DNA of 64,000 nucleotides from Propionibacteriaceae bacterium (GTDB lineage Bacteria; Actinomycetota; Actinomycetes; Propionibacteriales; Propionibacteriaceae): the NCBI GenBank assembly GCA_031265875.1, contig JAISCA010000066.1:1-64000 (forward strand), read 5' to 3'. The translations under genes and the position numbers were made by a program. Positions 11,077 through 27,800 of the stretch are shown here, in pieces. A model generated the notes under the pieces. The model was not told the DNA's origin and searched no databases. It saw only the letters and a program-made list of their open reading frames with translations. The first letter of the stretch is position 1. Each line of letters opens with the position of its first letter.

Positions 11077-12855
11077 TCACTCGGTCGGAGCGGCGCTTTC
11101 CGGGCTGACGTCGGCCGGGTCGGCGGACGGGCTCAGATCAGTCGACCGATGGCTCCGGCGCCGCCGCCTGGGCCGGCCGGTCGAGGTCCGGTCCGAGGCC
11201 GCCGCCGGCTCGCCGTCGTCGGCCGACGGTCGTTTGGGGGCCGAGGTCCGGCGGGACCGCGGCGGCCGGTCCGAGACGGGGGCCGCGGTCGCTAGATCGG
11301 GGACCGCCGGCGTCGTGGTTGTCGTGGCAGTGGTCGGCGGGACGGGGGCGGCCTCGTCTGGTCCGGCCGGAGTCGCGGCCGACGACGCCTCGTTGCGCGA
11401 CACCGGGACGCCGTTGCGGCGGCGGGTGCGCTGGCGGGAGGACCGTTCGGAGCGGTCGGACCGCTCAGCTCGGTCGGAGGCCGAGCGGTGGGCCGGACGG
11501 GCGGCCGAGCGGGCGGGGGCGCGGGCCGGCCGGGGACGTTCCGGTGGGGCCGTCAACCAACCGCTGGCGTCGGCCGGGATCTCCAATTCCTCCAGCAGCT
11601 GGGCCGTGGTCGAATAGGCCTCCAGCAGGGTGTCGAAGGACAGGCCGAGGGCGTGGTTGATCATCTTCCAGCGGGTCAGGTCGGCCCAGTCGACCAGGGT
11701 GACGGCGACGCCGGTGTGACCGGCCCGGCCGGTGCGGCCGATGCGGTGGACGTAGGTCTTCTCATCGTCCGGGCAGTCGTAGTTGACGACATGGCTGACC
11801 TGGTCGACGTCGATGCCGCGGGCCGCCACGTCGGTCGCCACCAGGACCTGGGCCTTGCCGGCCCGGAAGCGGGCCAGGGCCCGCTCGCGCACCACCTGGC
11901 TGAGATCGCCGTGGATGCAGGTGGCGGTGAAGCCGCGCTCGACCAGGTCGTCGGCCAACCGTTGGACCGACCGCTTGGTGCGGCAGAAGACCATGACCCG
12001 GGTGGCCGAAGGGGCCTGCAGCAGCTTGCCGACGATGGTCGGCTTGTCCAAGTCGTGGGCCTGATAGACGAATTGAGTCGTCTCCGGCACCGTCATGGAG
12101 GCGTCGTGGGCCTCGGCCCTGATATTGATGGGCTGCTTCAGATGGGCCCGGGCCAAGCCCACGATGGCGGACGGCATGGTGGCGGAGAAGAGCATGGTCT
12201 GGCGCTCAGTGGGCGTCTGGGCGATGATCCGTTCGACGTCGGGCAGGAAGCCCAGGTCGAGCATCTCGTCGGCCTCGTCCAGGACCAGGGCCTTGACGGC
12301 GGACAGCACCAAGGAGCGGCGGCCCAACAGGTCGAGCAGACGCCCCGGCGTGCCCACCACCACGTCGACGCCCTCGGCCAAGCCGTCCAGCTGAGGCTCG
12401 TAGCCGACCCCGCCGTAGACGGTCAGGACCTTGGCCCCCCGGGCCCGGCCCACCACTTCGAGGTCGCCCGAGACTTGGAGAGCCAACTCGCGGGTCGGAC
12501 ACATGACCAAGGCTTGGGGCAAGCGCCGCTGGTCGGGATCGTAGCCCTCGTCGCCGGGCAGGCAGATGCGCTGCAGCAAGGGGATGCCGAAAGCCAAGGT
12601 CTTACCCGTGCCGGTGCGGGCTTGGCCGATCAGATCGGAGCCCTGTAGGGCGATCGCGATGGCTAGGTGCTGGATCGGGAAGGCGTATTCGAAACCGGCC
12701 GCGGTCAGGGAATCGACGATGACGGGGGAAACCCCCAGGGAGGCGAAACTAGGCTGTTCGGGCTCGACGGTCCCACTAGGGTCGTTGGTCTCACTGGGAT
12801 CGCTGGGCTCGATCTGGCCGGTCGGCTGAGGGGCGGTCTTGGAGTCTTGCGTCAT
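11077..12855 (-). CDS. DEAD-box RNA helicase with long basic C-terminal tail
   Basis: A 592-residue ATP-dependent RNA helicase for RNA unwinding, probably in ribosome assembly or mRNA turnover. After an acidic N-terminal lead, it has the Q motif (FPIQ, about 59-62), motif I ARTGTGKT (79-86), PTREL, GTPGR, DEAD (193-196), SAT (224-226), the RecA2 motifs and HRIGRTGR. From about residue 445 the chain is low-complexity, rich in Arg, Ser, Ala and Pro with SDR/SER repeats, likely a disordered RNA-binding extension. TGAGGAACT precedes the ATG. DUF3107 ends 6 bp upstream, so the two are cotranscribed. It matches the RhlE/DeaD-type helicases of this actinobacterial neighbourhood. Confidence 0.93.
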   Translation of the reverse strand: MTQDSKTAPQPTGQIEPSDPSETNDPSGTVEPEQPSFASLGVSPVIVDSLTAAGFEYAFPIQHLAIAIALQGSDLIGQARTGTGKTLAFGIPLLQRICLPGDEGYDPDQRRLPQALVMCPTRELALQVSGDLEVVGRARGAKVLTVYGGVGYEPQLDGLAEGVDVVVGTPGRLLDLLGRRSLVLSAVKALVLDEADEMLDLGFLPDVERIIAQTPTERQTMLFSATMPSAIVGLARAHLKQPINIRAEAHDASMTVPETTQFVYQAHDLDKPTIVGKLLQAPSATRVMVFCRTKRSVQRLADDLVERGFTATCIHGDLSQVVRERALARFRAGKAQVLVATDVAARGIDVDQVSHVVNYDCPDDEKTYVHRIGRTGRAGHTGVAVTLVDWADLTRWKMINHALGLSFDTLLEAYSTTAQLLEELEIPADASGWLTAPPERPRPARAPARSAARPAHRSASDRAERSDRSERSSRQRTRRRNGVPVSRNEASSAATPAGPDEAAPVPPTTATTTTTPAVPDLATAAPVSDRPPRSRRTSAPKRPSADDGEPAAASDRTSTGRPRRRRRSHRSTDLSPSADPADVSPESAAPTE

Positions 12856-12861
12856 AGTTCC

Positions 12862-13086
12862 TCAGATCGTGCCGAAGCCGACTGGGCGGGCGTGTTCGGC
12901 CCCCAACTCGACGTAACCGATGCCGTCGCTGGGCACCAACACCCGCCGGCCGTGGACATCGCTCAAGGCCAATAGGCCATGGCTGGCCAGGGCCTCATGC
13001 AAGGCCTCCATTAGTTGATCGGCGGTCTGATCAGACTCCACCACGATCTCTTTGGCCACCTGTCGGATGCCAACTCTGACTTCCAC
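12862..13086 (-). CDS. DUF3107 family small protein
   Basis: A 74-residue protein of the actinobacterial DUF3107 family: VRVGIRQVAKEIVVESDQT at the N-terminus, a middle helix and the GIGYVELG strand near residue 60. The family is annotated as ATP-binding in places but has no settled function. The start is a GTG with AGGAGGAAC just upstream. It is the first gene of a unit with the DEAD-box helicase. Confidence 0.85.
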   Translation of the reverse strand: MEVRVGIRQVAKEIVVESDQTADQLMEALHEALASHGLLALSDVHGRRVLVPSDGIGYVELGAEHARPVGFGTI

Positions 13087-13173: not shown

Positions 13174-14199
13174 TCAGATGTTCAGGTTGTCCTGATCGAC
13201 TTCGCCGGGCAGAGCCGGGCGGATCACGATCCGAGTCCAGGCCCCCAGATAGATCCGGTCGTCCGGGCCGACCGGCAACCGGGCGCTGATGGATTGAGTC
13301 GGCAGGTCGCGGCCAGCCGGGGCGACGAAGGTGCCGTTGGCCGAGTCGAGGTCGCTGAGGTACCACTGACCGGCCTGCTCGGTCAGTTCGGCTTGGCGGC
13401 GGCTGCAACCGACGTCGTGACCGCAATCGATCTGCGGCGTCAGATGACGGCTAGTCGAACGGCGGCCGATCAGAGCCGGCGAGGTCAAGCGGAAGACGCG
13501 CGGCGGTCCGACCGTCGGCAGCGGCTCGGGCGGCGACTGGGCGGCGTACCAATCCGGGTCGATCCAGACTTCCGCCACCCAGGGCGGACTGGTCCTAAGC
13601 GACGGTCCGGTCACGGCCACGGGCGTCGATCCGGCTTCGGCCGTCGGGATGGGCGCGGCGGCGTTCGAGGCGACCACGGACAGGTCTAGATCGGCCCAGG
13701 GCTTTCTGGGCGGATCGGCGGGCAGGTCTAACTCGATCGGACCGGCCGAGCGGGAGGAGTCAGACGCGGGCCGGCTGGCGGCGGAGCCAGACGACGGATC
13801 GAAACTAGGGGCGCTGGGTCGGTCGGGCCCATCGAAGCGCGCTGCGCCCACCCGGTCCGAGCCGGGCTGGGCGATCGGCTCAGAGCCGGTCGACCGCTCG
13901 TGGGAGGAGTCCCAGGCCGCGCCCGCGCTCGTCTCTGAGCCCGGCTCAGCTATCTGGTCCGGCTCCGAGCGGGCCAATCCCAAAGCTTCGGCCAAATCGG
14001 TCGTGGGCAAGGCGCCGGTGGTGTAGTCGTAGCCGCAGGCCTCGCAGAAGAGGGCGGCGGCCGGGCGGGGAGCGCCGCAGTGGGGACAGGTCTGAGCCGG
14101 TGGAGCGACCACCGGGGCCGCCCCACCGGCCATGGGCAGACCGCAGACATCGCAGAAGTCGATGGTGGCGGACTGGTGGCCGTTGGAACAGGTGCTCAT
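13174..14199 (-). CDS. Zinc-ribbon and FHA domain protein, last gene of the kinase-TelA operon
   Basis: A 341-residue protein. The N-terminal 60 residues hold two zinc-ribbon-like knuckles (FCDVCGLP and CPHCGAPRP...CEACG). A long Ser/Pro/Asp-rich linker follows (about 65-220), then a C-terminal FHA domain (about 235-330) with LIGRRS, CSRRQAEL and the NGTF motif. FHA domains bind phosphothreonine, so this is the likely reader of the operon's kinase. The FHA signature is slightly divergent, since the usual SxxH is SRRQ here. It begins 1 nt after the VWA gene stop, with AGAGGT upstream. GarA-like signalling is a family analogy, not shown. Confidence 0.85.
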   Translation of the reverse strand: MSTCSNGHQSATIDFCDVCGLPMAGGAAPVVAPPAQTCPHCGAPRPAAALFCEACGYDYTTGALPTTDLAEALGLARSEPDQIAEPGSETSAGAAWDSSHERSTGSEPIAQPGSDRVGAARFDGPDRPSAPSFDPSSGSAASRPASDSSRSAGPIELDLPADPPRKPWADLDLSVVASNAAAPIPTAEAGSTPVAVTGPSLRTSPPWVAEVWIDPDWYAAQSPPEPLPTVGPPRVFRLTSPALIGRRSTSRHLTPQIDCGHDVGCSRRQAELTEQAGQWYLSDLDSANGTFVAPAGRDLPTQSISARLPVGPDDRIYLGAWTRIVIRPALPGEVDQDNLNI

Positions 14200-14200
14200 G

Positions 14201-15481
14201 TCAACCTCTGATACGAGTGGTCTTGGTCGAGGCCGTGTCGAGGGCCATCTCGTCGGCTCGGTCGATGTCGCGACGCAATTGGACCAGGCCGGTGGCGGCG
14301 TCGGACACGTCGACCACCCGGCGCAATTTGACAGTGGCCTCCTCGTTGCCGGTCTGAGCGGCCAATTGGACGGCCCGGCCCAATTTGACCGTGGCGGTGC
14401 GGTCGTCGCCGGCGGCGCGGGCGGCCAAGCCCTCTTGGATGGCCAGAGCCAATTCGGTCTGGCCGGTGTAATGCGCCACCTCCGGGCTGATCCGGGCGGT
14501 CAGACTGGGATCGGCCGACCAGCGAGCCTTGACCAGCCCCTGGGTCAAGACCTGGGCCCCGATCGCCAACTGGACTCGGGCGGCCAACTGCTCGACGCCG
14601 ACCGACTTGGCTGGCAGACGGACGGCGATGTGGTAGTCGCGCGACTCGTCGCCCCAGGCGCCGGTCGGGTAACCCTGGGTCAGAGCATTGATGGGGGAGC
14701 CGCGATGGGTCAGGTCCTCGACCGTGGGCGAGACCTGGCGCACGAACAGGATCTGGGCGTCTTGCGGAGTCCAGACCCGCAACTGGGCGTCGGCCACGCC
14801 TCGGCTCATGGCTTGCTGGACTAGGTCCGCCATGACCTGGGGCAGGTCACGGGCGTCCGGGATGATGTCGACGCTGCCCAGCAAGGCCTGGGCGATCTTG
14901 CGCACCTCGTTGACCTTCCAGTCCACGCCGATGCCCCGGCAGTCGACCTGGAACTGGCCGATGCAGCCGCGGATGGCGGAGTCCAGTTGGGTCGGCGTCT
15001 CGTTGTAGTCCTCGCCGTCGGTCAACAAGATGGCATGACGTCCGACCAGGCTGGGGACGGAGGCGAAGAGCTTGCGCGCCAGCAGCAGCCACTGCCCGAT
15101 GGCGGTGCCGCCGTCGGCCCGGAAGGAGGCGATGGCGGCCTTGGCCGCCTGACGTGAGGCCTGGTCCATCCGGACCATGCCTTGGCCGCTGAAGACGCGC
15201 GGATAGGCCAGGAAAGCCTGATGGGTGCCGGCCACGATGGCGAACCAGGTGCCGTCCAGAATCGAGTCGACAGCGATGGCGGCGGCCCGTTTGGCCATCT
15301 CGACCCGGTCGCCGATCATCGAGCCGGAGGTGTCCACGATGATGATCTCGCCGACTTCGCCCAGCCCGCTGCGGCCGGCCGAGCCGGCTCCTTGGCAGGT
15401 CAATTGGACGATGGCGTGAACGTCGGTTCCTTGATCGGGCAGGAACTCGTTCTGAGAGACGGTGGCGCTGAAGTCGACCAT
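14201..15481 (-). CDS. VWA domain protein (TerY-like)
   Basis: A 426-residue cytoplasmic protein with a von Willebrand A domain at about 45-225. The MIDAS motif is intact: DTSGS (50-54), the threonine in GGTAIG and the aspartate in LLTDGED. A beta-rich middle and a helical C-terminal part follow, ending in a Thr/Ser-rich tail (ASTKTTRIRG). It resembles the VWA component of TerY-P triads (VWA, PP2C phosphatase, kinase) described with tellurite/stress systems. Metal-dependent ligand binding is expected. The exposed C-terminal threonines could be substrates of the kinase and ligands of the FHA protein encoded next; that is inference. Confidence 0.85.
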   Translation of the reverse strand: MVDFSATVSQNEFLPDQGTDVHAIVQLTCQGAGSAGRSGLGEVGEIIIVDTSGSMIGDRVEMAKRAAAIAVDSILDGTWFAIVAGTHQAFLAYPRVFSGQGMVRMDQASRQAAKAAIASFRADGGTAIGQWLLLARKLFASVPSLVGRHAILLTDGEDYNETPTQLDSAIRGCIGQFQVDCRGIGVDWKVNEVRKIAQALLGSVDIIPDARDLPQVMADLVQQAMSRGVADAQLRVWTPQDAQILFVRQVSPTVEDLTHRGSPINALTQGYPTGAWGDESRDYHIAVRLPAKSVGVEQLAARVQLAIGAQVLTQGLVKARWSADPSLTARISPEVAHYTGQTELALAIQEGLAARAAGDDRTATVKLGRAVQLAAQTGNEEATVKLRRVVDVSDAATGLVQLRRDIDRADEMALDTASTKTTRIRG

Positions 15482-15493
15482 GGGGCAATTGTC

Positions 15494-16552
15494 TCAGACC
15501 GAGCAGCGGGCCAAGCCCACGGTGACATTGTCATGGCCACCTTGATCGTTGGCCCAGTCCACCAGGCGTTGGGCCAGGACCAAGGGCGAATCGGTCGGCT
15601 CCGGCTCCAGGACGGCCCGTTCGACCGTCCGGCCCAGGGCCGCCGCCGCTGAGGCGTAATTCCACAAGCCGTCCGAACAGACCAAGAGCCAGCCCGGCTG
15701 GTCCAGTCGCAAATGACCGGCGCAGGGCTCCAGATCGGTCGCGTCCAAGCCCAACCATTTGGTGATGGTGTGGGCCAAGGCGGAGGCCTCGGCCACCGCG
15801 CGCGCCACTCCCTGGTCGATCTGGGACTGAGCCAGGGAGTGGTCCCGAGACAACAGGACGGCATCCCCTTGATCGGGTAGCCAGTAGACCCGTGAGTCGC
15901 CCAGCGAGGCCCAGAAACAAGTTGAATCGTCTATCAGGGCCAGGGCGATGGTGGACGAGGCCGGGTTGGGGCTGTCCGGAGCGGTGGCCTCGATGACGAC
16001 CCGATTGGCCTGTTGGATGGCCTGGCGGAGACGCTGGGCGGTGGCGCTGGCCCGGGTCCGGCTCAAGCCGAGGCCTTGGGGCTGATCCGACCAGAGCAGA
16101 TCGCGGGCCCGGCGGGCCGCCGCCAAGGAAGCCACGTCGGAGTCCTGAGAGGTCGTCACGCCGTCGCAGACCACGATGACGGCCAGTTGGCCCGGTTCGT
16201 CCGTGGCGGCCGTGGCCAAGGCGTCCTCGTTGCATCGATGGGCCCGGCCGATGTCGCAGACACCGGCCACCCAACTGGCTGGGGCCTCGCTGAAATGGTC
16301 GCGGCCGGACTGGGCCTTGGCCCCGCACTGGGTGCAGTAGCCGTCCGGATCGATCACGCCGCCGCAGATGGGACAGGTGTCGCAGCCGGGCAGGTCCGGG
16401 TCGCGACCGCTCGACCAGGGCTGGGTCGGGGCCTCTTCGGTCGGGGCGGTCCAGGTCACTCCCGGAGCCGGGGGCGACTCGGGCGCCGGGACGGACTCGA
16501 GCGGGTCGAGATCTGGCTCAGGGCCGCTGACGGTCGGATCGGTCTCGCTCAT
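15494..16552 (-). CDS. PP2C family Ser/Thr phosphatase with N-terminal zinc ribbon
   Basis: A 352-residue protein phosphatase, predicted to reverse the phosphorylation by the kinase encoded just upstream. Residues 1-55 are acidic and proline-rich. A zinc ribbon with C60, C63, C73 and C76 (CPICGG...GYCTQCG) follows. The PP2C domain runs from about 95 to 352 with RCNED (metal-binding E109/D110), VVCDG (D130-G131), the loop LLVCSDGLWNY and the final aspartate in GGHDNVTV. The start at 16552 gives an ATGA overlap with the kinase stop; a longer frame to 16633 lies inside the kinase gene and is rejected. Confidence 0.92.
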   Translation of the reverse strand: MSETDPTVSGPEPDLDPLESVPAPESPPAPGVTWTAPTEEAPTQPWSSGRDPDLPGCDTCPICGGVIDPDGYCTQCGAKAQSGRDHFSEAPASWVAGVCDIGRAHRCNEDALATAATDEPGQLAVIVVCDGVTTSQDSDVASLAAARRARDLLWSDQPQGLGLSRTRASATAQRLRQAIQQANRVVIEATAPDSPNPASSTIALALIDDSTCFWASLGDSRVYWLPDQGDAVLLSRDHSLAQSQIDQGVARAVAEASALAHTITKWLGLDATDLEPCAGHLRLDQPGWLLVCSDGLWNYASAAAALGRTVERAVLEPEPTDSPLVLAQRLVDWANDQGGHDNVTVGLARCSV

Positions 16553-19047
16553 ATCAGAGTCCACTTTCTGGTCTGGTTCGCCTGATCGATCAACTCGACC
16601 CGTTGTTTCGGATCCAGTTCCAAGCTGGCCCAATCGCGCAAGGTCTGCTCCAACTGGCGGCGCAGGGCGGGCCGGGTCAAGGGGACGCCGCCGAGTTGGC
16701 CACTGAGCGGGTTACGGCCGGCTGAGCGGACCAGCTCCAAAGCCTGCTGATAGACCTTGACCTCGACCTTGGCTTGGGAGACGGGGTCCAACTTGGCGGC
16801 TTGTATGGCGCTCAAGGCTTGCTCCAAGGCCGGCAGGTCACGGCCGTAGGTGACCAAGTAGGTGGCGGCCAACCGACGGGCCTCCGGGTAGCCCCGGGCG
16901 GTGGCGGGGATCAGATCGAGGGCGGCCAGGACCGCGTCCAATTGGACCGGCCGCCCGTCCGGGCCCTGCCGCCGGGCCCGCACCCGGGCCAAGCCGAAAC
17001 CAGCCGCCGTCAGATAACTGGTGTCGGTGGCGGCGCAGACTCCGTACAGACTCTCCGCCAGATCGGGTTGGCCGCCCATCTCGCAAGCCACGGCCAAGGC
17101 GAACTTGGGAGCCAACTCGCCGGGCACCTGGCCTAAGACGGCGTTGAAATACGACTGGGCCAGGTTCCACTGCGACTGCTGCAGGTGGTTCACACCCGCC
17201 ATCCAGGCCGCCCGCCACTCCCAGGGGTCGAGACTCAGCATGGCCTCCACGCGCTGCTCGACGAAGGCGGCGTCGCCCAACTCGAGACCGACCCAGCAGC
17301 GGGCCAACTCGACCTCGGGCGAGAGGATGGGCGGTTGGCTGAGCGCGGCCAGACGCTCGGTCGGCGACAGCAGAGCCAGGCTGGTCAGCCAGCCGAGGGC
17401 CGGGTCGGTCGGGTCGGGTTTGAGCCGGGGCAGGTGCGACCAGTCGAAGCTGTCCGAGGCCACGGTGGGCTGCTCGAACAACTCGGAGGCGGCCGAACTG
17501 GTGGCCACGCCGCCCCGATCGAGGCTGACCGCTTCGCGCAGGACGCCTAGCAATTGGACTCGCAACTCGTCGATCGAACTGAAACGGTCGGACGGGCTGG
17601 GGGCGCAGGCCTTGGCCATCAGGCGGTAAAGCGAGTCGTAGCGGGCCAGACCGGGCAACTCGTCGACCGGTGGCAGGGTGGTCTGGTAGGTCGTCTGGTA
17701 ACCCTTGACCTCGGCGCAGCAGACCAGAAGGGTCCGGCCGATGGTGTAGATGTCCGAAGCGACCGAGCAGCCCTGGGTGGGGACCTCGGGAGCTTGGAAA
17801 CCGGCCGTGCCGAAGATGGGCGAGACGTCGTCGTTCAACCGTCGCACCCCACCCAGATCGATCAGCTTGACGGTGTCGTCCAAGTGCATCAGATTGTCCG
17901 GTTTGAAATCGCAGTAGAGCAGGCCGCGTTGATGCAGGTAGCTGAAGGCCGGCAGGACGCCCAGAGCCAGGGCGATGGCCTGATCCACCGGCAGAGGGTT
18001 GTAGGCCCCGGCGGCTGAGCGGCGGTCCTTCAGGATCTGTTTGACCGAGCGGCCGTTGACGAACTCCATCACGATGTAGGCGGCGTTCTGGTGGGTCACG
18101 AAGTTGAAGATCTCGACGATCAGGGGATGCTGGACCTCGGCCAAGAAACGCTGTTCGGCGATGGCGGAGGCTTGAGCGTTGGCGTCGCCGACGTTGAGCA
18201 GGCCCTTCAGCACGACCCAACGGTTGGACACGTTATGGTCCTGGGCCAGGTAGATCCAGCCCATGCCGCCGTAGGCCAAGGGGCCGCGGACCTCGTATTG
18301 TCCGGCCACCAACTCGCCCACGGTCAGCTTGGGGGTGAAGGAGTAAGGCTGGCGGCACTGGGGGCAGAAGCCCTCCAGCCGGCCTTGCCCGGAGTCACCC
18401 GAGCGGCCCACGGCGGCGCCGCAGCTAGGACAGACTCGGCGTTCCTCCGGGATGGTGGGATCGGTCAAGATGGCGGCCGCCGGGTCGCCGGCCGGTTCCA
18501 CCGGCACCTCGGTCAGGCCGACGCCGAGATGGCCCGAGCGCAGCCGGTTGGAGGTGGTGGCGCGGCTGACCGAGACCGCCACGGAGCCGGATTGCAACCG
18601 GGCCGAGCCCAAGGCGGTGGTGCTCAAACGGCTGGTCAGAGGAGCCACCAAGCCGGTCGTGGGCGGGCGGGCGACTGGACCGGCCGGGGCGCCGCAGATG
18701 GTGCAATAGCCGTCCTCGATCAGACCGGGACAACCAGGGGCCTGGCAGCGCTGAGCGCCGCGGGGCGGCTGTCCACTGGGTTGGGCCGGTCGTCCTGGAG
18801 CCGGTTGGCGGGGGAGAGCGCCGGCGGCGGGCGCCGGGAAGGGAGAGACGGCTCGACCGCCCGGTGTCCCGGTGGCGGCCGCTGGGCCGCCCGGCCGGGG
18901 AGAGGCGGGGTGGACTGGGCCCAAGGGCGGGGCGGGCGGCGCTGGTCGAGGGTTCAGTGGAGCGACGCCGCTCAGCGCCGGCAGGCCACAGACATCGCAG
19001 TAGCCGTCCACGATCGATCCGGAGCATCCGGGACGTTGGCATCTCAT
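16549..19047 (-). CDS. PknG-like Ser/Thr protein kinase with zinc ribbons and TPR-like tail
   Basis: An 832-residue soluble kinase. Two copies of a zinc ribbon (CQRPGCSGSI...GYCDVCG at 3-20 and CQAPGCPGLI...GYCTICG at 101-118) are joined by a Pro/Ala linker. A rubredoxin-like CPSC...CPQC (206-231) then directly precedes the kinase domain (about 250-500). The kinase has a glycine loop LAYGGMG, K281, the catalytic loop YCDFKPDN (D380) instead of HRD, and DLG (D397) instead of DFG, all as in mycobacterial PknG. The C-terminal 300 residues form helical TPR-like repeats. The start at MRCQR (19047) overlaps the upstream stop as ATGA; the extension to 19314 is rejected. The rubredoxin part suggests redox or metal control. 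Confidence 0.92.
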   Translation of the reverse strand: MRCQRPGCSGSIVDGYCDVCGLPALSGVAPLNPRPAPPAPPLGPVHPASPRPGGPAAATGTPGGRAVSPFPAPAAGALPRQPAPGRPAQPSGQPPRGAQRCQAPGCPGLIEDGYCTICGAPAGPVARPPTTGLVAPLTSRLSTTALGSARLQSGSVAVSVSRATTSNRLRSGHLGVGLTEVPVEPAGDPAAAILTDPTIPEERRVCPSCGAAVGRSGDSGQGRLEGFCPQCRQPYSFTPKLTVGELVAGQYEVRGPLAYGGMGWIYLAQDHNVSNRWVVLKGLLNVGDANAQASAIAEQRFLAEVQHPLIVEIFNFVTHQNAAYIVMEFVNGRSVKQILKDRRSAAGAYNPLPVDQAIALALGVLPAFSYLHQRGLLYCDFKPDNLMHLDDTVKLIDLGGVRRLNDDVSPIFGTAGFQAPEVPTQGCSVASDIYTIGRTLLVCCAEVKGYQTTYQTTLPPVDELPGLARYDSLYRLMAKACAPSPSDRFSSIDELRVQLLGVLREAVSLDRGGVATSSAASELFEQPTVASDSFDWSHLPRLKPDPTDPALGWLTSLALLSPTERLAALSQPPILSPEVELARCWVGLELGDAAFVEQRVEAMLSLDPWEWRAAWMAGVNHLQQSQWNLAQSYFNAVLGQVPGELAPKFALAVACEMGGQPDLAESLYGVCAATDTSYLTAAGFGLARVRARRQGPDGRPVQLDAVLAALDLIPATARGYPEARRLAATYLVTYGRDLPALEQALSAIQAAKLDPVSQAKVEVKVYQQALELVRSAGRNPLSGQLGGVPLTRPALRRQLEQTLRDWASLELDPKQRVELIDQANQTRKWTLI

Positions 19048-20258
19048 GGTCGGCCCGTCCTCGGCGCGGCCTCGACTCGGTCTGTGGCCCCGGCCTGGTC
19101 GGAGGAGCCGGTCCGGTCGGGGGCTGGAGCCGGGGCCAACTTGAGGGCGGCCGCGTAAGCGTCCAGCATCGGGCGCAGCACCGCCATCGGCGTGGGCTGA
19201 CGCGACAGCAGAGCCTCGGCTTGATCGGCCAGGCTGGCCAGCTGGGGGTCCGGTTCGGCCATAGCCCGGCCCCGGAGGCGCAGGCGGGCCAGTTCGGCGC
19301 CCGCCGCCGACCAATCGTCCAGAGCCGCCCGGTTGGCCCGCTCGACGAGATCCATGGCTTGGGCGACCATCTCCAACCGGGCGCCGTAGCGTTCCAGCTC
19401 AGCCTCGTCGGTCGGTGGCGGGCCCAGCGCGTCCAGGTGGGGCACGGCGTACTTGGGAGTCGGACGGACCCGTTCACGGACCTGTTCGACCAAGGCGTCG
19501 AGCTTAGTCTCGCGCTGACTCAAGCGTTCCCGCAGGTCCTCGACCTGGGCGGTCCGCTGGGCCACCCGCCGGCGGCGGGCGTTGCCCACGATGAGGTCGC
19601 GCTCAAGCCGGGCGGCCTGGATCTCAAGCGGCCCCAAACGGCCGCCGATGTCGCCCCCCCGGCCGGCGGCGGCCGTCAATTCGGCGGTGGCGCCGGCCAC
19701 CTGGTCGACCTGGGAGCGCCAGTCGGGTCTTAGATCGACCGGTTCCAATTCGACTTGTTGGCGTAGCCGTTCGACCTGGGCCCTCAGCCCGGACAGCCGG
19801 AGCGAGGCTTGGCCGTCCAGAGCGGTCAGGCTGAGCTGGGCCGTCAGCTGGGCGGTCAGAGCGTCGGACAGCCGGCAGGCCTCGGGCAGATTGACCGACA
19901 GGCCCTGGGCGCTGGCGGCGGTCGGAAGAGGGCCGGCCGGAGCCGAGGCGTCGTCCAAGCGGCTCCAGATCAGTTGGGACAGCTGGCGCAACTGGACCGG
20001 ACCGACCCGGCCGGAGTCCCAGCAGCGCGTCAACTCTTGGTAGCGCCGCTGGATCGCCTGCCAAACGGACAGGGCCACCACCAAGTCACCGGTCCCGGTC
20101 GCCGGATCGGGCCGGTCGGCCAAGGCCTGGTCGAGCCGGTCCAACTCGGCCCGCCGTTGGCCCAGCCACTCGCCCAACTGGTCGAGGTAGGTCAGCATCT
20201 GCTGGGGCTGGGCCGGCCGGTCGAGGGCGCCGGGCGGCCAAGGGGCGGTCGGACTCAC
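19044..20258 (-). CDS. Coiled-coil protein of the kinase-TelA operon
   Basis: A 404-residue soluble protein I do not recognise. It is nearly all helical, rich in Leu, Gln, Arg and Ala, with heptad stretches around LRAQVERLRQQVELE (about 157-171) and a long one at about 225-270. It ends in an Ala/Pro/Asp-rich tail. It has no catalytic motif, zinc ribbon or signal peptide. The GTG at 20258 overlaps the preceding stop (GTGA), and its own stop overlaps the kinase start (ATGA). It is therefore locked between the membrane protein and the kinase and may act as a scaffold between them. Confidence 0.65.
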   Translation of the reverse strand: MSPTAPWPPGALDRPAQPQQMLTYLDQLGEWLGQRRAELDRLDQALADRPDPATGTGDLVVALSVWQAIQRRYQELTRCWDSGRVGPVQLRQLSQLIWSRLDDASAPAGPLPTAASAQGLSVNLPEACRLSDALTAQLTAQLSLTALDGQASLRLSGLRAQVERLRQQVELEPVDLRPDWRSQVDQVAGATAELTAAAGRGGDIGGRLGPLEIQAARLERDLIVGNARRRRVAQRTAQVEDLRERLSQRETKLDALVEQVRERVRPTPKYAVPHLDALGPPPTDEAELERYGARLEMVAQAMDLVERANRAALDDWSAAGAELARLRLRGRAMAEPDPQLASLADQAEALLSRQPTPMAVLRPMLDAYAAALKLAPAPAPDRTGSSDQAGATDRVEAAPRTGRP

Positions 20259-21619
20259 TGGAATCGCCTCAAGCGGATGCGGAAGCCGACCAGGGTCAGA
20301 CTCATGGCGAGGACGCCCGGCAGCAAGACTTCGATGTACGGTCCGAGACCTGAGTTGAATCCGCTGCCGTCGACCAGCCAGACCAGCTCGGCTTCGGCCC
20401 CCTGGCCGGCTTGGACCAGTCGCTGCCAGGGCGACTGGGAGTCCAGACGGAAGGCCGTGGCCACTTCGGCCGGGTCGCTGTTAGGAGACAGGTTGTCATG
20501 GGTGGAGCGGATCTCGGCCAAGGTGGAGCGCAGGTCCGACCAGGCTTGGCCATGGCTCAGGGGTGAGCGCTCCAGCGCGTCCAGCTCGGCTTCGGCCTGG
20601 GCCAAATGTTGGCTGGCCTCCGCCCGGTGGAGGTTGAAGGCGTTTGGCGATCGGATGGCCAGACAGTCGGCCGCCGCCACCGACCAAGCCTCGGTTTCGA
20701 TCCGATAGATCAAGCGGACGGCCTGGATCCGTTCGGCGGCCTGGTCCGTATCGCGCTGGAAGCGCTGAGCGGAGACGGACAGCATGGTCGCCATCACGAG
20801 CAGAGCCGCCATGGCGCCGATCAAGCCCAGATTGAGCAGACGATGGGTCCGGCGCGCCATCGGCGCCATCACCAAGATCAAGAGGGCGACGCTGGACCAA
20901 CTGGCGATCAAGGCGATGGTCAGCAGGGGAGACACAGTCCCCGGCCCGGAGTCCAAGTCGGCCCGCTCGATCAGAGTCGTCAATTGGCCGTTGAGCCCGT
21001 CCTGGGCCATCCGGTGCGCCTCGGCCAACTGGTCGAAGCCGCCGCCGGCCCCAGCCGGGTCGGTCCGCCAGGCCGCCTCGACCAGGTCTTGGTAAGCCAT
21101 GGCCGTCTGAGACAGGGCCACCAGTTCCTCGAAGTCGGTCTGATGCGAGCGGACGGCGTTCAAGACGCCCCGGTGGACGTCGCCCATGGCGGCGTTGAAG
21201 GCGTCGATCAGGCTGGGGGAGGCCGCTGGGTCGATCGAAGAGACGGCGATGGCGTCGGCCCGGGCCCAGTCGGTTTGGATGTCACGTAGGTCGACGCTGC
21301 GTTGGGCGGCCTCGTTGAAGATCTCCGCTCGCTGAGGCGGCACGGTGATGGCGAAAGCGCTGAGCAAGGTGGCGATGGCTAAGCAAGCCAAGCAGACCAG
21401 GCGCAAACGGCTCAATAGGCGCGGGGTGGGCAGACGCGAGGCCGAGGCCTGGGGCGGTCGGCCGGCGGGGCTGGTCCGGTTGGACGGGGCCGGCCGGGTC
21501 TGGGCCGGGCCGAGCGGTTGGCTCGGCCCAGACCAAGTTTGGACTGGCCCTGGCGGTGGGACCGCGGCCACCGGCGCGGGAGCGCCGCTATGACGTGGCC
21601 CAGGACCAGGTCTAGGCAT
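20255..21619 (-). CDS. Four-helix membrane protein, GlnX-like topology
   Basis: A 454-residue protein. An N-terminal cytoplasmic Pro/Ala-rich tail (1-70) is followed by membrane segments at about 72-93, 231-252, 263-283 and 430-447. This gives two extracytoplasmic helical domains of roughly 140 residues each (94-230 and 284-429). The topology matches GlnX, the tetraspanning partner of PknG in corynebacteria and mycobacteria, which passes on signals from the binding protein GlnH. No GlnH-like gene is present here. Assignment rests on topology and position next to a PknG-like kinase; sequence identity could not be tested. It may be the sensor of this operon. Confidence 0.65.
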   Translation of the reverse strand: MPRPGPGPRHSGAPAPVAAVPPPGPVQTWSGPSQPLGPAQTRPAPSNRTSPAGRPPQASASRLPTPRLLSRLRLVCLACLAIATLLSAFAITVPPQRAEIFNEAAQRSVDLRDIQTDWARADAIAVSSIDPAASPSLIDAFNAAMGDVHRGVLNAVRSHQTDFEELVALSQTAMAYQDLVEAAWRTDPAGAGGGFDQLAEAHRMAQDGLNGQLTTLIERADLDSGPGTVSPLLTIALIASWSSVALLILVMAPMARRTHRLLNLGLIGAMAALLVMATMLSVSAQRFQRDTDQAAERIQAVRLIYRIETEAWSVAAADCLAIRSPNAFNLHRAEASQHLAQAEAELDALERSPLSHGQAWSDLRSTLAEIRSTHDNLSPNSDPAEVATAFRLDSQSPWQRLVQAGQGAEAELVWLVDGSGFNSGLGPYIEVLLPGVLAMSLTLVGFRIRLRRFQ

Positions 21620-22865
21620 GGCCGGTCTCCGTCTCCGGAATCGGATCGGCTGAGTTTGGGACGCTCCCGGCCGGGTCAGACGTGACCGAGTCAGCCGAGA
21701 CTGGGGCCAGCGGCCAGTCGACCGGCTTCTGATCGGCTGGGCCGATGACTGGGCCGACGACGTCGGCGGGCAAGAGCTGGCGCAACTGTTCTGTGCTGGG
21801 CTCGGCCTCGTCGCGCAGGCGCCAGGCTTGACGGCCGATGGCGGCCTCGAAGACGTTACGGGCGAAGCGGCCGTTGCCGAAGCTGTCGTCTCTGACCTGC
21901 TGGGCCAAGACCAACCGGAAGGCGTCGGTGGCCTCGGCGGTGAGGTCGTAGTCGGCCTTGTCGGCCATCGAGGCGAAGATGTCGGCTAACTCGTCGTCGC
22001 TGTAGTCGTCGAACATGATGGTAGTGCGGAAACGGCTGGCCAAGCCTGGATTCTCGGCTATGAAACGCTCCATCGGAGCGGGGTAGCCGGCCACGATGAC
22101 GACCAGGTCCGAGCGATGGTCCTCCATCTCCTTGACCAAGGTGTTGATGGCCTCTTCACCGTATTGATCGCCGGCTAGGGAATAGGCCTCGTCGATGAAG
22201 AGGACGCCGCCTAGGGCCTGGGACGCCACCTCGGCCGTTTTGATGGCGGTCTGGCCGAGGTAGCCGGCCACCAGTTCGGAGCGGTCGACCTCGATCAGTT
22301 GGCCTTGGCTGAGCAGCCCGAGGGCCCGGTAGATGCCGCCGACCAGGCGGGCCACGGTGGTCTTGCCGGTGCCCGGATTGCCCACGAAGACCAGGTGCCG
22401 GGTCACGGTCGGATCCTTCAGACCGGCTTTGGCGCGCAGCCCCTGGACTCTCAAGATGGCGGATTGATGGTGGATCTCCTGCTTGACCGAGTCCAAGCCG
22501 ATCAACTCGTCCAGCTCGGCCAGCAGCTCCTCCAAGGTCTTGGGCTCTGGTTCCGGTTCCGGCGCCGGCTCGGCCGTGGGGAGCGGCTCGGCCGCTAAGC
22601 CGGTCGGGGCCGACGACGGGGCCGAACCAGCGGTGGTCGCCGCGCCGGCCGGATTGAGCGCGCCGAAGGCGCCCGGACCGTGTGGGTCGAGGCCGCTGAG
22701 GTCGAAGTGGTCGACTGAGGCGGGCAGGTCGGCGGCCGGCAGCCCCAGATCGCGCAGGCGTTGGGACTGTTGGCGCAGTTGCCCGAGGACGCGCGACAAC
22801 AGGGCCGGGGCCTCCTGGGTGAATTCCGTCATGGTCTGCTCAGGCGTCTTGTCCGGCTCCGTCAC
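21612..22865 (-). CDS. CbxX/CfxQ-type AAA+ ATPase
   Basis: A 417-residue AAA+ ATPase. A variable N-terminal region (1-105) contains a helical start and a Pro/Glu linker. The ATPase core has ELIGLDSVKQEI, Walker A GNPGTGKT (162-169), the pore-type loop ELVAGYLGQT, Walker B VLFIDEAYSL and the sensor/arginine region NPGLASRFRTTI. This subgroup includes rubisco activase CbxX and the C-terminal domain of EccA of type VII secretion, which remodel partner proteins. Nothing else of a type VII system is seen. The frame can begin at TTG 22868, but GTG 22865 gives a GTGA overlap with the previous stop, in keeping with the rest of the operon. Confidence 0.88.
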   Translation of the reverse strand: MTEPDKTPEQTMTEFTQEAPALLSRVLGQLRQQSQRLRDLGLPAADLPASVDHFDLSGLDPHGPGAFGALNPAGAATTAGSAPSSAPTGLAAEPLPTAEPAPEPEPEPKTLEELLAELDELIGLDSVKQEIHHQSAILRVQGLRAKAGLKDPTVTRHLVFVGNPGTGKTTVARLVGGIYRALGLLSQGQLIEVDRSELVAGYLGQTAIKTAEVASQALGGVLFIDEAYSLAGDQYGEEAINTLVKEMEDHRSDLVVIVAGYPAPMERFIAENPGLASRFRTTIMFDDYSDDELADIFASMADKADYDLTAEATDAFRLVLAQQVRDDSFGNGRFARNVFEAAIGRQAWRLRDEAEPSTEQLRQLLPADVVGPVIGPADQKPVDWPLAPVSADSVTSDPAGSVPNSADPIPETETGHA

Positions 22866-23407
22866 CAAGCCTCCAGATCGAGTGGGTTGTCTGAGGGCGG
22901 GTCGGCGGGAGCGTCCAGCCGGGTCGCCCCGGGGGCCTCGGGGGCGAACTTCTGGCGTAAGAAACGACCTTGCGCGACCAAGGCGCGGGCGTCCTTCTGC
23001 AAGACGGCGTCGTACATGCGATCGACCGCCGCGCCCAGGAGGTCGAGTTGGTCGATCAGAATCAACAGGCTGGTCTTGCCTTGGGCGATGGGCCTGGTGT
23101 TGGCCCAGTCGCGGGGCAGGCGCAGGTATCCGCTCAAGGACTCCGGCAGGTAGCTGGTGGCGGTGGCGATGAGGGCGTACTGGTCGACCGAGGTCAAACC
23201 GGCATTGTCCATCCGGGGCACGGTCTGGCGCAAGCGGTCGGTGACGCGCCGCACCCGCGCCACCACCGGCGCAGGCAACGTCGGATCGGCCACCGACTGG
23301 TCGACCTGATCGAGGGCGGCGACGATGTCGGCCGGGGTCGGGGCAGGCGGCACCACCGGGGCCGGGCCAGCCTCGTCGTCTCCTTTGATCCAGCCGAACA
23401 AAGCCAC
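22862..23407 (-). CDS. Conserved protein encoded next to TelA
   Basis: A 181-residue soluble protein starting with GTG (MALFGWIKGDDE). A Pro-rich linker (15-26) is followed by an all-helical domain with YLPESLSGYLRLPRDWA (about 85-101). Such small helical proteins often accompany telA; XpaC-type proteins occupy a similar place in other tellurite-resistance loci, but identity with that family is uncertain. No catalytic residues stand out. It lies 11 bp after telA and overlaps the ATPase gene, so its product may work with TelA or the AAA+ protein. Confidence 0.6.
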   Translation of the reverse strand: MALFGWIKGDDEAGPAPVVPPAPTPADIVAALDQVDQSVADPTLPAPVVARVRRVTDRLRQTVPRMDNAGLTSVDQYALIATATSYLPESLSGYLRLPRDWANTRPIAQGKTSLLILIDQLDLLGAAVDRMYDAVLQKDARALVAQGRFLRQKFAPEAPGATRLDAPADPPSDNPLDLEAW

Positions 23408-23418
23408 GGAAGAGGCTC

Positions 23419-24660
23419 TCAGCGGGCGGTGTCGACGTCGAAATCGGTCGGAATGACGGGCTGAGAGGACTGAGCCCGGTCGAGGTAGGCGCGCGACTTG
23501 ACGACCTCTTGCTCCAGCACGCCGATGGTCTGCGACATCGACTGCAAGGCTTCGGCCTTGAAACTATCGATCGTGTCCATGGTCTGGTAGATGTTCTGGA
23601 AAGCGGACTGGAGCTGCTCCAGCCCCAGGGTCGAGCTGGAGGCCTGCTGACGGATCGCGGACGAGTTCTCCTTCAACATCTCCGAGGTCCGCTGGATCAT
23701 GTCCGAGGTGGTCGAGTTGAGGGCCGTGATCTGGTCCAGGACCAGCTTCTGGTTGCCCAGGGCGGCGGCCACGATGACGGCCGTGCGCAGAGCCGAGACG
23801 GTCGTGGTGGCGGCCCGGTCGACGCCCTTGATCAACTCGATGTTGTTCTTGATGATGATGTCGATGGCCAGGTAGCTCTGGATCGAGACCGCTAGCTGGG
23901 TCAACAGGTCCTGGTGCTTCTGGCGGACGTAGAACAGAACGTCCTCGCTCATGACCTTGGCCCGTTCAGTGTCGGTCAGCCCGATCTCGGCCACGCGGGC
24001 GGCCAAACGGCGGTCGAGCTGTTCGGCGATGTAGACGTATTGGTTCAGCCGGCCCATGGTCTGCCACAGGTTCTGCTTCTCCATGTTGAGGGCGACGTTG
24101 TCACGGGTCAGCTCGTCCTGGGCGGAACGCAGGGCGTGCAGGATGGCGTTGAGGTGCGTCTGCGAGGACTGGTACTTACGGAAGTAGTCCTCCAGCTTGC
24201 GTCCGACCGGGAAGATCCCGAGCAGCTTCTTGGTCGGGGAGGCCTCATGGCCGGGATCGAGGTCCTCGATCGTGCGGCGCAACTCCATCAGAGTCTTGCC
24301 CACGCTGGACCCCTCGGCCAAGCCGCCCTCGCGCAGCGATTTGACTGGTGTGTTGAGGAGCCGGTTGGAGGTCTCAGCGGCTCGTCTGATATCGGCGTCG
24401 CCCATGCTGCGGACGGCGTCGGCCTGGGCCGAGAACTCGGGCGAACGGGTTTGAGCCTGGTCGATGGCGGACATGAAGTGCTCCACCTTCTCGTCCAGCA
24501 CCGGCACCTGGGCGGCCTCGACCTGGGGGGCCAGGGCTGGGGCCTGCGTCTCGGTGATGGGCTGGACCGGGGCCGGCGCCTCAAGAGTCAACGGCGGGGT
24601 CGTGATGGGAGTGGCCAGCGGCGCGGCGGCGGCGTTGCCGAGTGACAATGAATCGGTCAT
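23419..24660 (-). CDS. telA: TelA family toxic anion resistance protein
   Basis: The first gene of the nine-gene operon encodes a 413-residue soluble helical protein of the TelA family. The Pro/Ala-rich N-terminus (1-60) leads into long helices with the family-typical stretches FPVGRKLEDYFRKYQSSQ and EQLDRRLAARVAEIG, a run of TTVSALRTAVIVAAALGNQ near 290, and IRQQASSSTLGLEQLQ. TelA proteins are linked to tellurite, antibiotic and envelope-stress resistance, but their biochemical action is unknown. CAGGAGACC precedes the ATG. The promoter must lie in the 215 bp shared with adnA; no box was convincing. Confidence 0.88.
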   Translation of the reverse strand: MTDSLSLGNAAAAPLATPITTPPLTLEAPAPVQPITETQAPALAPQVEAAQVPVLDEKVEHFMSAIDQAQTRSPEFSAQADAVRSMGDADIRRAAETSNRLLNTPVKSLREGGLAEGSSVGKTLMELRRTIEDLDPGHEASPTKKLLGIFPVGRKLEDYFRKYQSSQTHLNAILHALRSAQDELTRDNVALNMEKQNLWQTMGRLNQYVYIAEQLDRRLAARVAEIGLTDTERAKVMSEDVLFYVRQKHQDLLTQLAVSIQSYLAIDIIIKNNIELIKGVDRAATTTVSALRTAVIVAAALGNQKLVLDQITALNSTTSDMIQRTSEMLKENSSAIRQQASSSTLGLEQLQSAFQNIYQTMDTIDSFKAEALQSMSQTIGVLEQEVVKSRAYLDRAQSSQPVIPTDFDVDTAR

Positions 24661-24875: not shown

Positions 24876-27800
24876 ATGCCGATCGATCAGCCCGTCTTCC
24901 AACTGGTCCGCCGTTCGGCGCCGGCCCCAGCGGCTGGCCGGCCGACGGCCAGCCAGCGCCAGGTGATCGATTTCGACGGCGCCCGCCTGCTGGTCCTGGG
25001 CGGTCCCGGCGCAGGTAAGACGACCGTCCTAGCGGCGACGGCGGCGGCTCAGCTGGCAGTTCAGCCGGATTGGCGGGCGCTTCTGATCAGTCCGGACCGG
25101 GCCGCAGCCGAGGCTTTGCGGATCGAATTGGCGCAACGTTCACCGGAGGTCTGGGACCGGGTTCGCGTCATGACTTGGTACGGTCTGGCCTTCAGTCTGC
25201 TGCCGGCGACCGGCCCGGGCGGGGCCGCCCGCTGGCTCAGCGCCAGTCGGGCCGACCAGCGCTGGCGTGACTTGATCGATCAGACCGGGCCGGCGGGCTG
25301 GCCGGCCGAGTTGGCCCAGGCTTGTCGCACTGGCCGATTCGCCCGCCAGACCCGCCAGGCGATGGAGCGGTTGCGCCGTCAGGGCTGGAGTCCGGAATCA
25401 TTGGAGTCGCGCGGCCGGGCGGCCGGCCGGGCCGACTGGCGAGCCTTGGCTGGCCTGTGGTCCGATTACGCCGACATCAAAGCCTGGCACGGCGACTTCG
25501 ACTCGGGCGACCTGATGGCCCAGGCTCTGGCGGCGGTCGAGAGGCCAGACTGGCGGACCGGTTCCGGCCTGGGCAAGGATTTAGTCCTAATCGATCAGTA
25601 CGAGGAGATCGAGCCAGATCAGCTCAGGCTGTTGGAGGCGTTGGCTCGCTCAGTCAGCCGGCTGATCGTCTTCGCCGACCCCTGCCAGACGGTGGCTGGT
25701 TTCCGGGGGGCGCGACCCGCCTCGGCTTTCGACTTCGCCCGCAGTCCCGTCGCTGGGGCGACCTCGGCGGTCGTCGAGCTGTGGGAACGGCGCCGCTGGG
25801 GAACGGCCTTGGACCCGGTGGAACGGCGGCTGCGGGCCGGTCTGGCCTTGCCCCGGCGGTGGCCTCAGCCGAGTTCCGAGCTGGACCAGACTCAGACCGA
25901 CGAGCCCACCGGAGACCGAGTCACTGGCCAGGGCGTGGCGGCGGTGGTCTATCCCAGCCCGCGGGCGGAGGCCGAGTCGATCGCCCGCCGACTGAGCCAA
26001 TGGCGTGCGGAAGAGGGCTGGGACTGGACGGAGATGGCCGTGGTGGTGCGCTCGGGCGGGCCGATCCCGGGACTGGTGTCGGCCTTGACGGCCGCCGGCG
26101 TGCCGGTGTCGTTGGCTTGGTCCGAGATCCCACTGGCGGGCGAGCCGGCCGCCGTCACCCTCCTGACGGCGCTCCAACTCTGCGTTCAGGTGGACCCGGC
26201 CCAAGATCCGCGGTGGCCCCGCCTGGTGGCATCGCCCTGGGCCGGTCTGGACCCGGCCGATCAGGCGGCTTGGGCGGCCGGACCGGCCACTGCCGCCGGG
26301 GCGGAGACGGCGCCGAGCCTGAGCCGGTCGGGTGATCGACGGCTGGCCGAGCTGCGCCACCGGCTGGAGCGGGCCCGCCAGTGTCTGGAGGCCGGATCGG
26401 GTCCAGTCGAGCCGCTCTGGGAACTGTGGCGAGGCTCGCCCTGGGCCAGCGCACTGCGAGCCGAGCTCGTCCGGGGGCCGGCGGCGGAGCAGGCGGCCGA
26501 TCGGCAGTTGGACGTGGTCTGCGCCCTCTTCGAACTGGCCCACGAGTTGGGGGACGTCGCCGGTCCAGCCGGAGTGACGGCTTTGGTCGAGCGGGTGACG
26601 GAGCAAGAGATCCCGGGCCGGGGGGGCCGGCGGCTGAGGCCGGGGCGACCGGGCGTGTCGATTCTGACCGCCCACCGGGCCAAGGGCCGGCAATGGTCGG
26701 CCGTCGTGGTGGCATCGGTCTGCGAGGGGATCTGGCCGGTGGTCGACTCGGCGGCGGAGTTGATCGATCTGACCGAGCTGTCGCCCGACGGCCAGTGCGC
26801 CCCGCCCGGGCCAAGCGAGCAAATGGCGAGCGAGCGACGCCTGTTCTACGTCGCCTGCACCCGCGCCCGCCATCGATTGCTGGTCACGACGGTGGATCAG
26901 AACCGAGCCGTCGGCCTGAGGCCGTCTCGTCTGATCGACCGGCTCGGCTGTCCGATCGAACCAGAAGATCGAACTGAGCCGTCTTGGCTGGGGTTGAATC
27001 AGCTGGTGGGAGGATTGCGCCGAGTCACGACCGACCCGGTCGCTCATCCCAGTCTGCGGCAGGCCGCCGCCGCCCGCCTGGCCGACTTGGCCTCACGGCC
27101 TGATCCAGTCAGCGGTCGCCGGCTGGTCCGTCAGGCCGATCCAGAGCGGTGGTGGCCCGTCGGCGGGGACGGCGGGGGCGATCTGGAATCGACCTGGCGC
27201 CTCGGTCCGGGCCAGGCCGGGGCGGCCGACGCCGGAGCCGGGCCGGAGCCAATCGACGGTCCCTGGCGTTTGACCGGCTCGCATCTGCGCTCTCTGCTGT
27301 CCTGCCCTAGACAGTGGTTCCTGGCCCGTCGAGCCAAAGCCGAGGGTCCGCCCGGTCCGGCCGCCGCCGTCGGCGCTTTGGTCCACCGCCTGGTCCAGGA
27401 CCTGGGCTCGGGCTCGATCGACCGGAGTCAAGCCGATCGACGCTTGGACCGCGAGTGGCCCGAGATCCTCTTCCCAGCTCAGTGGCAGGCCGCGGCCGAA
27501 CGCCGGGCGGCGGGGGAGACGCTGGATCGTTTCGAGCGTTGGCTCAGTCAGCGGACCGGCTGGCGTCTGCTCGGGGTCGAGGTCCCATTCGAGTTGTCCT
27601 TGACCATCGGCCAGGGCCGCTTCCAGTTGGTGGGCCGGATCGATCGGATCGATCAGGACGCCAGTGGCCGGATCCGGCTGACCGATTTCAAGACCGCCCG
27701 GCGTCCCCTGAGCGCCGCCCAAGCTGAGTCCGACGATCAACTCGGGGTCTATCAACTGGCCGTGCGATCAGGTGGCCTAGCCGACCTGACCGGGACGGCT

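What the first reader, a model, noticed from the sequence alone, without database searches (positions are those of the whole stretch)
13174..24660. Nine-gene operon joining a PknG-like kinase, PP2C phosphatase, VWA and FHA proteins with TelA and an AAA+ ATPase
The operon encodes writer (kinase), eraser (PP2C) and reader (FHA) of phosphothreonine, a VWA protein, TelA, a CbxX/EccA-like remodelling ATPase, a four-helix membrane protein and a coiled-coil protein. Kinase, phosphatase and VWA triads (TerY-P) and TelA are known from computational work on tellurite/stress systems, and PknG with GlnX from amino-acid sensing in corynebacteria and mycobacteria. The full combination with FHA, AAA+ and coiled-coil proteins is not one I can name as a characterised system. 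Inference: a membrane-to-cytoplasm stress response in which the GlnX-like protein senses, the kinase signals and TelA plus AAA+ execute.
Basis: partly seen in the sequence, partly recalled or inferred. Interest (0 to 1): 0.85.

Follow-up and report, generated by a model that had tools for sequence, protein, structure and literature searches.

The report
PknG signalling operon wired to TelA
This is a conserved run of nine genes (ten in most relatives) that couples a membrane receptor and the PknG protein kinase, known from tuberculosis and amino-acid-producing bacteria, to a phosphate eraser, a phosphate reader and a TelA stress module; it is shared by many soil, gut and sludge actinobacteria, and no description of it as one system was found.

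Summary
In detail: nine tightly packed minus-strand genes (24660 to 13174), most overlapping or 1-12 nt apart, catalytic motifs intact. They travel together: in 59 of 59 sufficiently long named loci from Propionibacteriales and Micrococcales they are collinear on one strand. Most relatives have ten genes: TelA, h181, AAA+, GlnX, GlnH, CC, PknG, PP2C, VWA, FHA. The window's clade has lost GlnH, the amino-acid-binding lipoprotein, and its GlnX is far more divergent while VWA, AAA+ and (nearly) PknG are not. The kinase is a true PknG (rubredoxin, kinase, TPR). Streptomyces has the seven-gene signalling core without TelA, h181 and AAA+; h181 is an unnamed TelA partner found across phyla. The VWA protein ends in a Thr-rich tail (LDT[AS]ST[KR]T[TS]R) kept in 107 of 107 sequences, the best candidate phospho-switch read by the Zn-ribbon/FHA protein, much like archaeal ArnB/ArnA. 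The known PknG output is not required here: all ten congeners lacking the OdhA family keep PknG. TerD is absent, so it is not a Ter system. Best reading: a receptor-kinase phospho-switch controlling a TelA/AAA+ envelope-stress module; executor step inferred. The GlnX-GlnH-PknG kernel is known; the assembly appears undescribed. New variant of a known kind.

The parts
23419..24660 (-). TelA (413 aa), first gene of the operon
   Evidence: PF05816 304 bits; the only TelA in the genome
22862..23407 (-). h181: helical TelA partner, family without a Pfam or NCBIfam model
   Evidence: no family hits; adjacent to TelA in nearly all actinobacterial TelA loci examined, also in a Sphaerotilus TelA-VWA locus and a Curtobacterium TerD/TelA operon; AF2 helical bundle, pLDDT 81
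21612..22868 (-). AAA+ ATPase of the SpoVK/CbbX/EccA type (Walker A and B, Arg finger present)
   Evidence: SpoVK 273, EccA 240, CbbX 223 bits, all below their curated cut-offs; AAA_lid_6; Walker A in 87 of 87 orthologues
20255..21619 (-). GlnX-like four-TM receptor with two extracytoplasmic domains; cytoplasmic loop ARRTHRLLN between TM2 and TM3
   Evidence: NF058618 4e-14; four hydrophobic segments at 75-93, 232-250, 264-282, 428-446 and the loop motif
19044..20258 (-). CC: all-helical coiled-coil protein of the PknG operon
   Evidence: AF2 pLDDT 91, all helical; homologous to the CC protein of Streptomyces pknG operons (hhalign 95.6 per cent, E 1e-8)
16549..19047 (-). PknG: N-terminal zinc ribbons, rubredoxin, kinase and TPR domains (start ATG 19047)
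   Evidence: PknG_TPR 5e-43, Pkinase 1e-27, PknG_rubred 2e-23; the HRD-equivalent and DxG motifs in 102 of 102 orthologues, catalytic Lys in 100, the other two being truncated
15494..16552 (-). PP2C phosphatase with N-terminal zinc ribbon (start ATG 16552)
   Evidence: PF13672 8e-11, Stp1 1e-31; metal-site motifs in 100 to 109 of 109; conserved DGYCxxCG ribbon
14201..15481 (-). VWA protein with VWA_3_C domain and invariant Thr-rich C-terminal tail (LDTASTKTTRIRG)
   Evidence: PF18571 5e-16; MIDAS motifs in 103 or more of 109 and the tail in 107 of 107
13174..14199 (-). Zinc-ribbon plus FHA protein (phosphothreonine reader), last gene
   Evidence: PF00498 3e-8; phospho-binding motifs in 102 to 104 of 104 orthologues

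Best explanation
A vertically inherited transmembrane signalling operon of the PknG-GlnX kind with a TelA effector module attached. Shown by comparison: common order TelA-h181-AAA-GlnX-GlnH-CC-PknG-PP2C-VWA-FHA, with GlnH lost in this clade. Proposed mechanism: (1) GlnX senses a signal at the outer face (with GlnH in most relatives, on its own or with an unknown ligand here) and passes it through the loop between TM2 and TM3; (2) PknG, docked through its TPR domain and perhaps the CC scaffold, phosphorylates Thr residues in the VWA C-terminal tail DTASTKTTR; (3) the zinc-ribbon/FHA protein binds the phosphorylated tail and forms a complex that PP2C dissolves; (4) the complex controls TelA-h181, which the SpoVK/CbbX-type AAA+ ATPase assembles or resets, adjusting envelope stress tolerance. 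Steps 1 and 2 rest on characterised PknG-GlnX biology plus sequence, step 3 on the invariant tail and the Arn analogy, step 4 on linkage and TelA phenotypes elsewhere.
For: 59 of 59 named loci collinear across Propionibacteriales and Micrococcales; pairwise protein distances of TelA, h181 and AAA+ correlate with those of VWA and CC at 0.83-0.94, though these correlations also reflect shared ancestry. True PknG architecture, motifs intact. GlnX identity falls from 0.58 to 0.26 (0.56 to 0.35 by pairwise local alignment) when GlnH is absent, at equal VWA and AAA+ identity and slightly lower PknG identity, as expected if GlnH and GlnX touch. Tail in 107 of 107 VWA proteins, and STKT kept in Streptomyces. 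FHA phospho-site residues kept. Arn parallel: zinc-finger FHA protein ArnA, VWA protein ArnB phosphorylated at C-terminal ETTRR peptides (PMC6509490). TelA-AAA pair without PknG in L058. A Listeria TelA mutant is more sensitive to nisin and tellurite (PMC12791056).
Against: No phosphorylation, binding or phenotype data. In Sulfolobus, changing single pairs of ArnB phospho-Thr did not break ArnA binding. Mycobacterial PknG works in a three-gene operon without these partners. GlnX similarity to the curated family is below its cut-off. CC and h181 have no informative fold match. Gene linkage does not prove that TelA is downstream of the kinase.
Confidence: 0.5

Rival explanations
1. It is the ordinary PknG-OdhI metabolic switch: PknG phosphorylates the GarA/OdhI homologue to set 2-oxoglutarate dehydrogenase flux, and TelA, AAA+, VWA and FHA are co-transcribed side branches.
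For: PknG and GlnX orthology; an OdhI-like FHA protein (164-aa frame) lies about 90 kb away on the same contig; this genome has an OdhA-type 1,324-aa protein.
Against: Ten of 19 genomes of the genus lack the OdhA family, seven of them at least 90 per cent complete, and all ten keep PknG; two also lack a strong OdhI match. The canonical ETTS site of OdhI is replaced in this genus, Kribbella and Nocardioides but kept in Mycobacteriales and Streptomyces. A Thr often remains nearby, and GarA has other targets, so this output is not excluded.
Confidence: 0.2
2. A tellurite or Ter-type stress system (TerY-P triad plus TelA).
For: Kinase, PP2C and VWA triad with TelA; h181 also occurs inside a Curtobacterium TerD/TelA operon.
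Against: No TerD in this genome or in 12 congeners, and one TerD in 21 genomes searched; the kinase is PknG with GlnX, and the core exists without TelA in Streptomyces.
Confidence: 0.12
3. A phage-defence or conflict system using a kinase, VWA and AAA+.
For: PADLOC hits, mostly generic kinase models; a separate Streptomyces PknG-like locus with a protease-like protein and VWA resembles published conflict systems.
Against: Fixed order, near-universal presence in the genus and joint inheritance are the opposite of defence-island turnover; no hit for CC, GlnX, h181, TelA, VWA or FHA in PADLOC.
Confidence: 0.05

Closest known systems
PknG-GlnX-GlnH amino-acid sensing operon (Mycobacterium, Corynebacterium; PMC6069109, PMC9769921)
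   Same: True PknG with rubredoxin, kinase and TPR; GlnX-type four-TM receptor; genetic linkage; GlnH present in most relatives of this operon.
   Different: Seven further genes here (TelA, h181, AAA+, CC, PP2C, VWA, FHA); GlnH lost in this clade with GlnX diverged; ODH output dispensable in the genus.
Archaeal ArnA-ArnB motility repression module (PMC6509490)
   Same: Zinc-finger plus FHA protein, VWA protein with Thr-rich phosphorylated C-terminus, Ser/Thr kinases and a phosphatase.
   Different: No PknG, GlnX, TelA or AAA+; homology of the VWA and FHA proteins beyond the shared domains was not tested; works like, not member of.
TelA/YaaN loci (Listeria lmo1966-lmo1967 XpaC-TelA; TelA-VWA-h181 of Streptomyces-type and Sphaerotilus genomes; TerD/TelA of Curtobacterium)
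   Same: TelA beside or near a small helical partner.
   Different: No PknG or GlnX in those loci; relation of h181 to XpaC not demonstrated.
SpoVK/CbbX/EccA AAA+ ATPases
   Same: Fold and motifs of the catalytic core.
   Different: Below all three curated cut-offs; sits with TelA, not with type VII secretion, rubisco or sporulation genes.

Membership tests
PknG kinase | Rubredoxin plus kinase plus PknG-type TPR domains | tested here: met
   PF16919, PF00069 and PF16918 all above cut-off
PknG kinase | Catalytic Lys, HRD-equivalent Asp and DxG Asp | tested here: met
   present in the window protein and in 100-102 of 102 orthologues
GlnX | Curated NCBIfam score | tested here: not met
   52.6 bits against cut-off 250; E 4e-14, so a divergent relative
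GlnX | Four TM helices with two extracytoplasmic domains, beside pknG | tested here: met
   four hydrophobic segments and synteny
GlnH-GlnX-PknG sensor system | GlnH binding lipoprotein in the operon | tested here: not met
   absent from the operon and no operon-type GlnH in the genus (best about 125 bits against 407-490 in relatives)
PknG-OdhI-ODH pathway | OdhI with ETTS phosphosite and OdhA present | tested here: inconclusive
   OdhA present in this genome but missing in ten congeners; ETTS replaced in OdhI, a Thr nearby remains
Ter/TerY-P system | TerD family protein | tested here: not met
   none in this genome or in 12 congeners
TelA family | PF05816 full-length match | tested here: met
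   304 bits, profile 2-332 of 332
Type VII secretion EccA | Curated EccA score | tested here: not met
   240 bits against cut-off 467
XpaC as identity of h181 | Match to the XpaC family | tested here: inconclusive
   no Pfam match for any of 31 members, but no XpaC sequence was at hand for a profile comparison

The most novel reading that the evidence does not exclude
PknG's older and wider job in Actinomycetota is not ODH control but a phosphothreonine switch on the VWA tail, read by the zinc-ribbon/FHA protein and erased by PP2C, that drives a TelA/AAA+ envelope module; the three-gene mycobacterial pknG operon would then be a reduced remnant, and this clade a natural receptor swap in which GlnX works without GlnH.
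Probability: 0.3. Interest if true: 0.8.

Novelty: new variant of a known kind. Interest (0 to 1): 0.6.

Why it matters
PknG is a much-studied kinase whose partners are known mainly from three-gene operons. This operon names seven further conserved neighbours, points to one short tail as the likely phosphorylation switch, gives evolutionary evidence that GlnH and GlnX interact (proposed but not demonstrated, PMC9769921), and offers a testable route to what TelA, a widespread protein of unclear function, does.

Tried and rejected
Defence system: PADLOC hits were mostly generic kinase models. Ter system: no TerD. EccA/type VII secretion: score far below cut-off. h181 as XpaC: no Pfam hit, no XpaC sequence to compare, left open. 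Fold searches of h181 and CC gave no informative match; a missing match is not evidence of a new fold. Promoter and terminator scan: nothing above chance. Paper searches for the full combination found nothing in the held open-access library; subscription papers are not covered.

Full report
What is there. Nine minus-strand ORFs from 24660 to 13174 were confirmed. In transcription order: TelA; h181, a 181-residue helical protein; a SpoVK/CbbX/EccA-type AAA+ ATPase; a GlnX-like receptor with four TM helices; CC, an all-helical protein; PknG; PP2C; VWA; and a zinc-ribbon/FHA protein. Real starts for PknG (ATG 19047) and PP2C (ATG 16552) give ATGA overlaps. Upstream, on the other strand, lies an AdnAB-like pair of UvrD-helicase/nuclease genes; downstream a DUF3107 gene and a DEAD-box helicase.

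Do the genes travel together? Yes. All congeners whose contigs are long enough show the same order. A named-genome scan gave 80 loci. Of 59 long enough to judge, 59 are collinear on one strand with AAA, GlnX, CC, PknG, PP2C, VWA and FHA all present (the first five were part of the choice of loci or follow from it; order and strand were not); h181 in 57, TelA in 54 (most of the rest run off the fetched stretch or contig), and GlnH in 44. The hosts include Kribbella, Nocardioides, Microlunatus, Granulicoccus, Micropruina, Cellulomonas, Nostocoides, Mobilicoccus, Ornithinimicrobium and Antribacter. One locus, Propionimicrobium, lacks the AAA+ gene. Contig lengths tie the window's genus to Propionibacteriaceae MAGs (e.g. 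TD116_bin43, Emb289P4bin58, Lab288P4bin79); that these come from termite guts is my inference from the sample names. Pairwise protein distances of TelA, h181 and AAA+ track those of VWA and CC (0.78-0.94), as expected for joint vertical descent.

Wider distribution. Streptomyces-type genomes have GlnX-GlnH-CC-PknG-PP2C-VWA-FHA without TelA, h181 or AAA+ beside them; their CC is a distant homologue. A member of another class (L047) has CC-PknG-PP2C-VWA-FHA with GlnX and GlnH next to it in convergent orientation. So the signalling core looks old and the three-gene mycobacterial form may be derived (inference). TelA with h181 occurs without PknG in many families, often with a different VWA protein between them, also in a betaproteobacterium and in a TerD operon, and TelA with AAA+ occurs alone in L058. 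The operon is thus two modules joined.

GlnH loss. The window operon has no room for glnH (GlnX and CC overlap by 4 nt), and no operon-type GlnH exists elsewhere in the genus. GlnH is also missing in Micropruina, Propionicimonas, Propionimicrobium and Mobilicoccus loci, and in Ornithinimicrobium with a very weak GlnX match. At matched VWA identity of 0.8-0.9, GlnX identity is 0.58 in GlnH-plus and 0.26 in GlnH-minus pairs, while AAA+ is 0.78 and 0.76 and PknG 0.77 and 0.68; pairwise local alignment gives 0.56 and 0.35. GlnX appears released or redirected once its binding protein is gone. CC also diverges somewhat more (0.74 and 0.58). Pairs share ancestry, so these are not independent samples.

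The phospho-switch. Every operon VWA protein ends in LDT[AS]ST[KR]T[TS]R (107 of 107); Streptomyces has LETRSTKTVRVKK. The tail runs past the Pfam VWA_3_C domain, which ends at residue 418 of 426. One caveat: the named loci were found with the pattern DEMALDTA, among others, which favours the start of the tail but not STKTTR. The FHA protein keeps its phospho-binding motifs in essentially all members, and PP2C and FHA proteins carry zinc ribbons. The archaeal ArnA (zinc finger plus FHA) and ArnB (VWA phosphorylated at C-terminal ETTRR peptides) pair is the closest mechanistic parallel. That PknG phosphorylates this tail is a prediction.

Known PknG output. PknG acts on GarA/OdhI to control 2-oxoglutarate dehydrogenase. 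Here ten of 19 genomes of the genus lack the OdhA family, seven of them at least 90 per cent complete, and all ten keep PknG (a second family, E1_dh, finds no OdhA-length protein in the eight of them tested). OdhI is present in most, but its ETTS site is replaced. The operon therefore has a role other than ODH control in those species.

Executor. TelA mutants of Listeria are more sensitive to nisin and tellurite, which suggests an envelope role, but nothing here tests it. TerD is absent.

Verdict. The operon is real, conserved and, as far as the held literature shows, undescribed as a whole; its kernel is known. Best filed as a new variant of the PknG-GlnX kind.

Noticed in passing
window 12862-13086 (-): DUF3107 gene (74 aa, 93 bits) between the operon and a DEAD-box RNA helicase (11077-12855); the helicase also lies downstream of FHA in many Propionibacteriaceae loci.
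   Followed up: partly
window 24876-31384 (+): Two adjacent UvrD-helicase/PD-(D/E)XK nuclease genes (AdnAB-like), divergent from TelA; an AdnA-like gene lies next to TelA in the genus and in some other Propionibacteriaceae.
   Followed up: partly
window 9784-10692 (-): Mrr-type restriction endonuclease (Mrr_N plus Mrr_cat, PADLOC mREase_IV 221 bits).
   Followed up: no
L037, L040, L044, L046: Second PknG-like kinase in Streptomyces-type genomes beside a VWA protein, with a protease-like protein upstream in L037, L040 and L046; looks like a different, conflict-type system.
   Followed up: no
L210 4965-8495: TelA, a VWA protein fused to a substrate-binding-like part, and an h181 homologue with N-terminal TM segments on a Sphaerotilus plasmid, beside a PhoX phosphatase gene.
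   Followed up: partly
L013, L014, L017, L024, L026, L027 next to FHA: In several congeners an ~820-aa protein (weak E1_dh match in those searched) lies beside the FHA end of the operon; not present there in the window.
   Followed up: no
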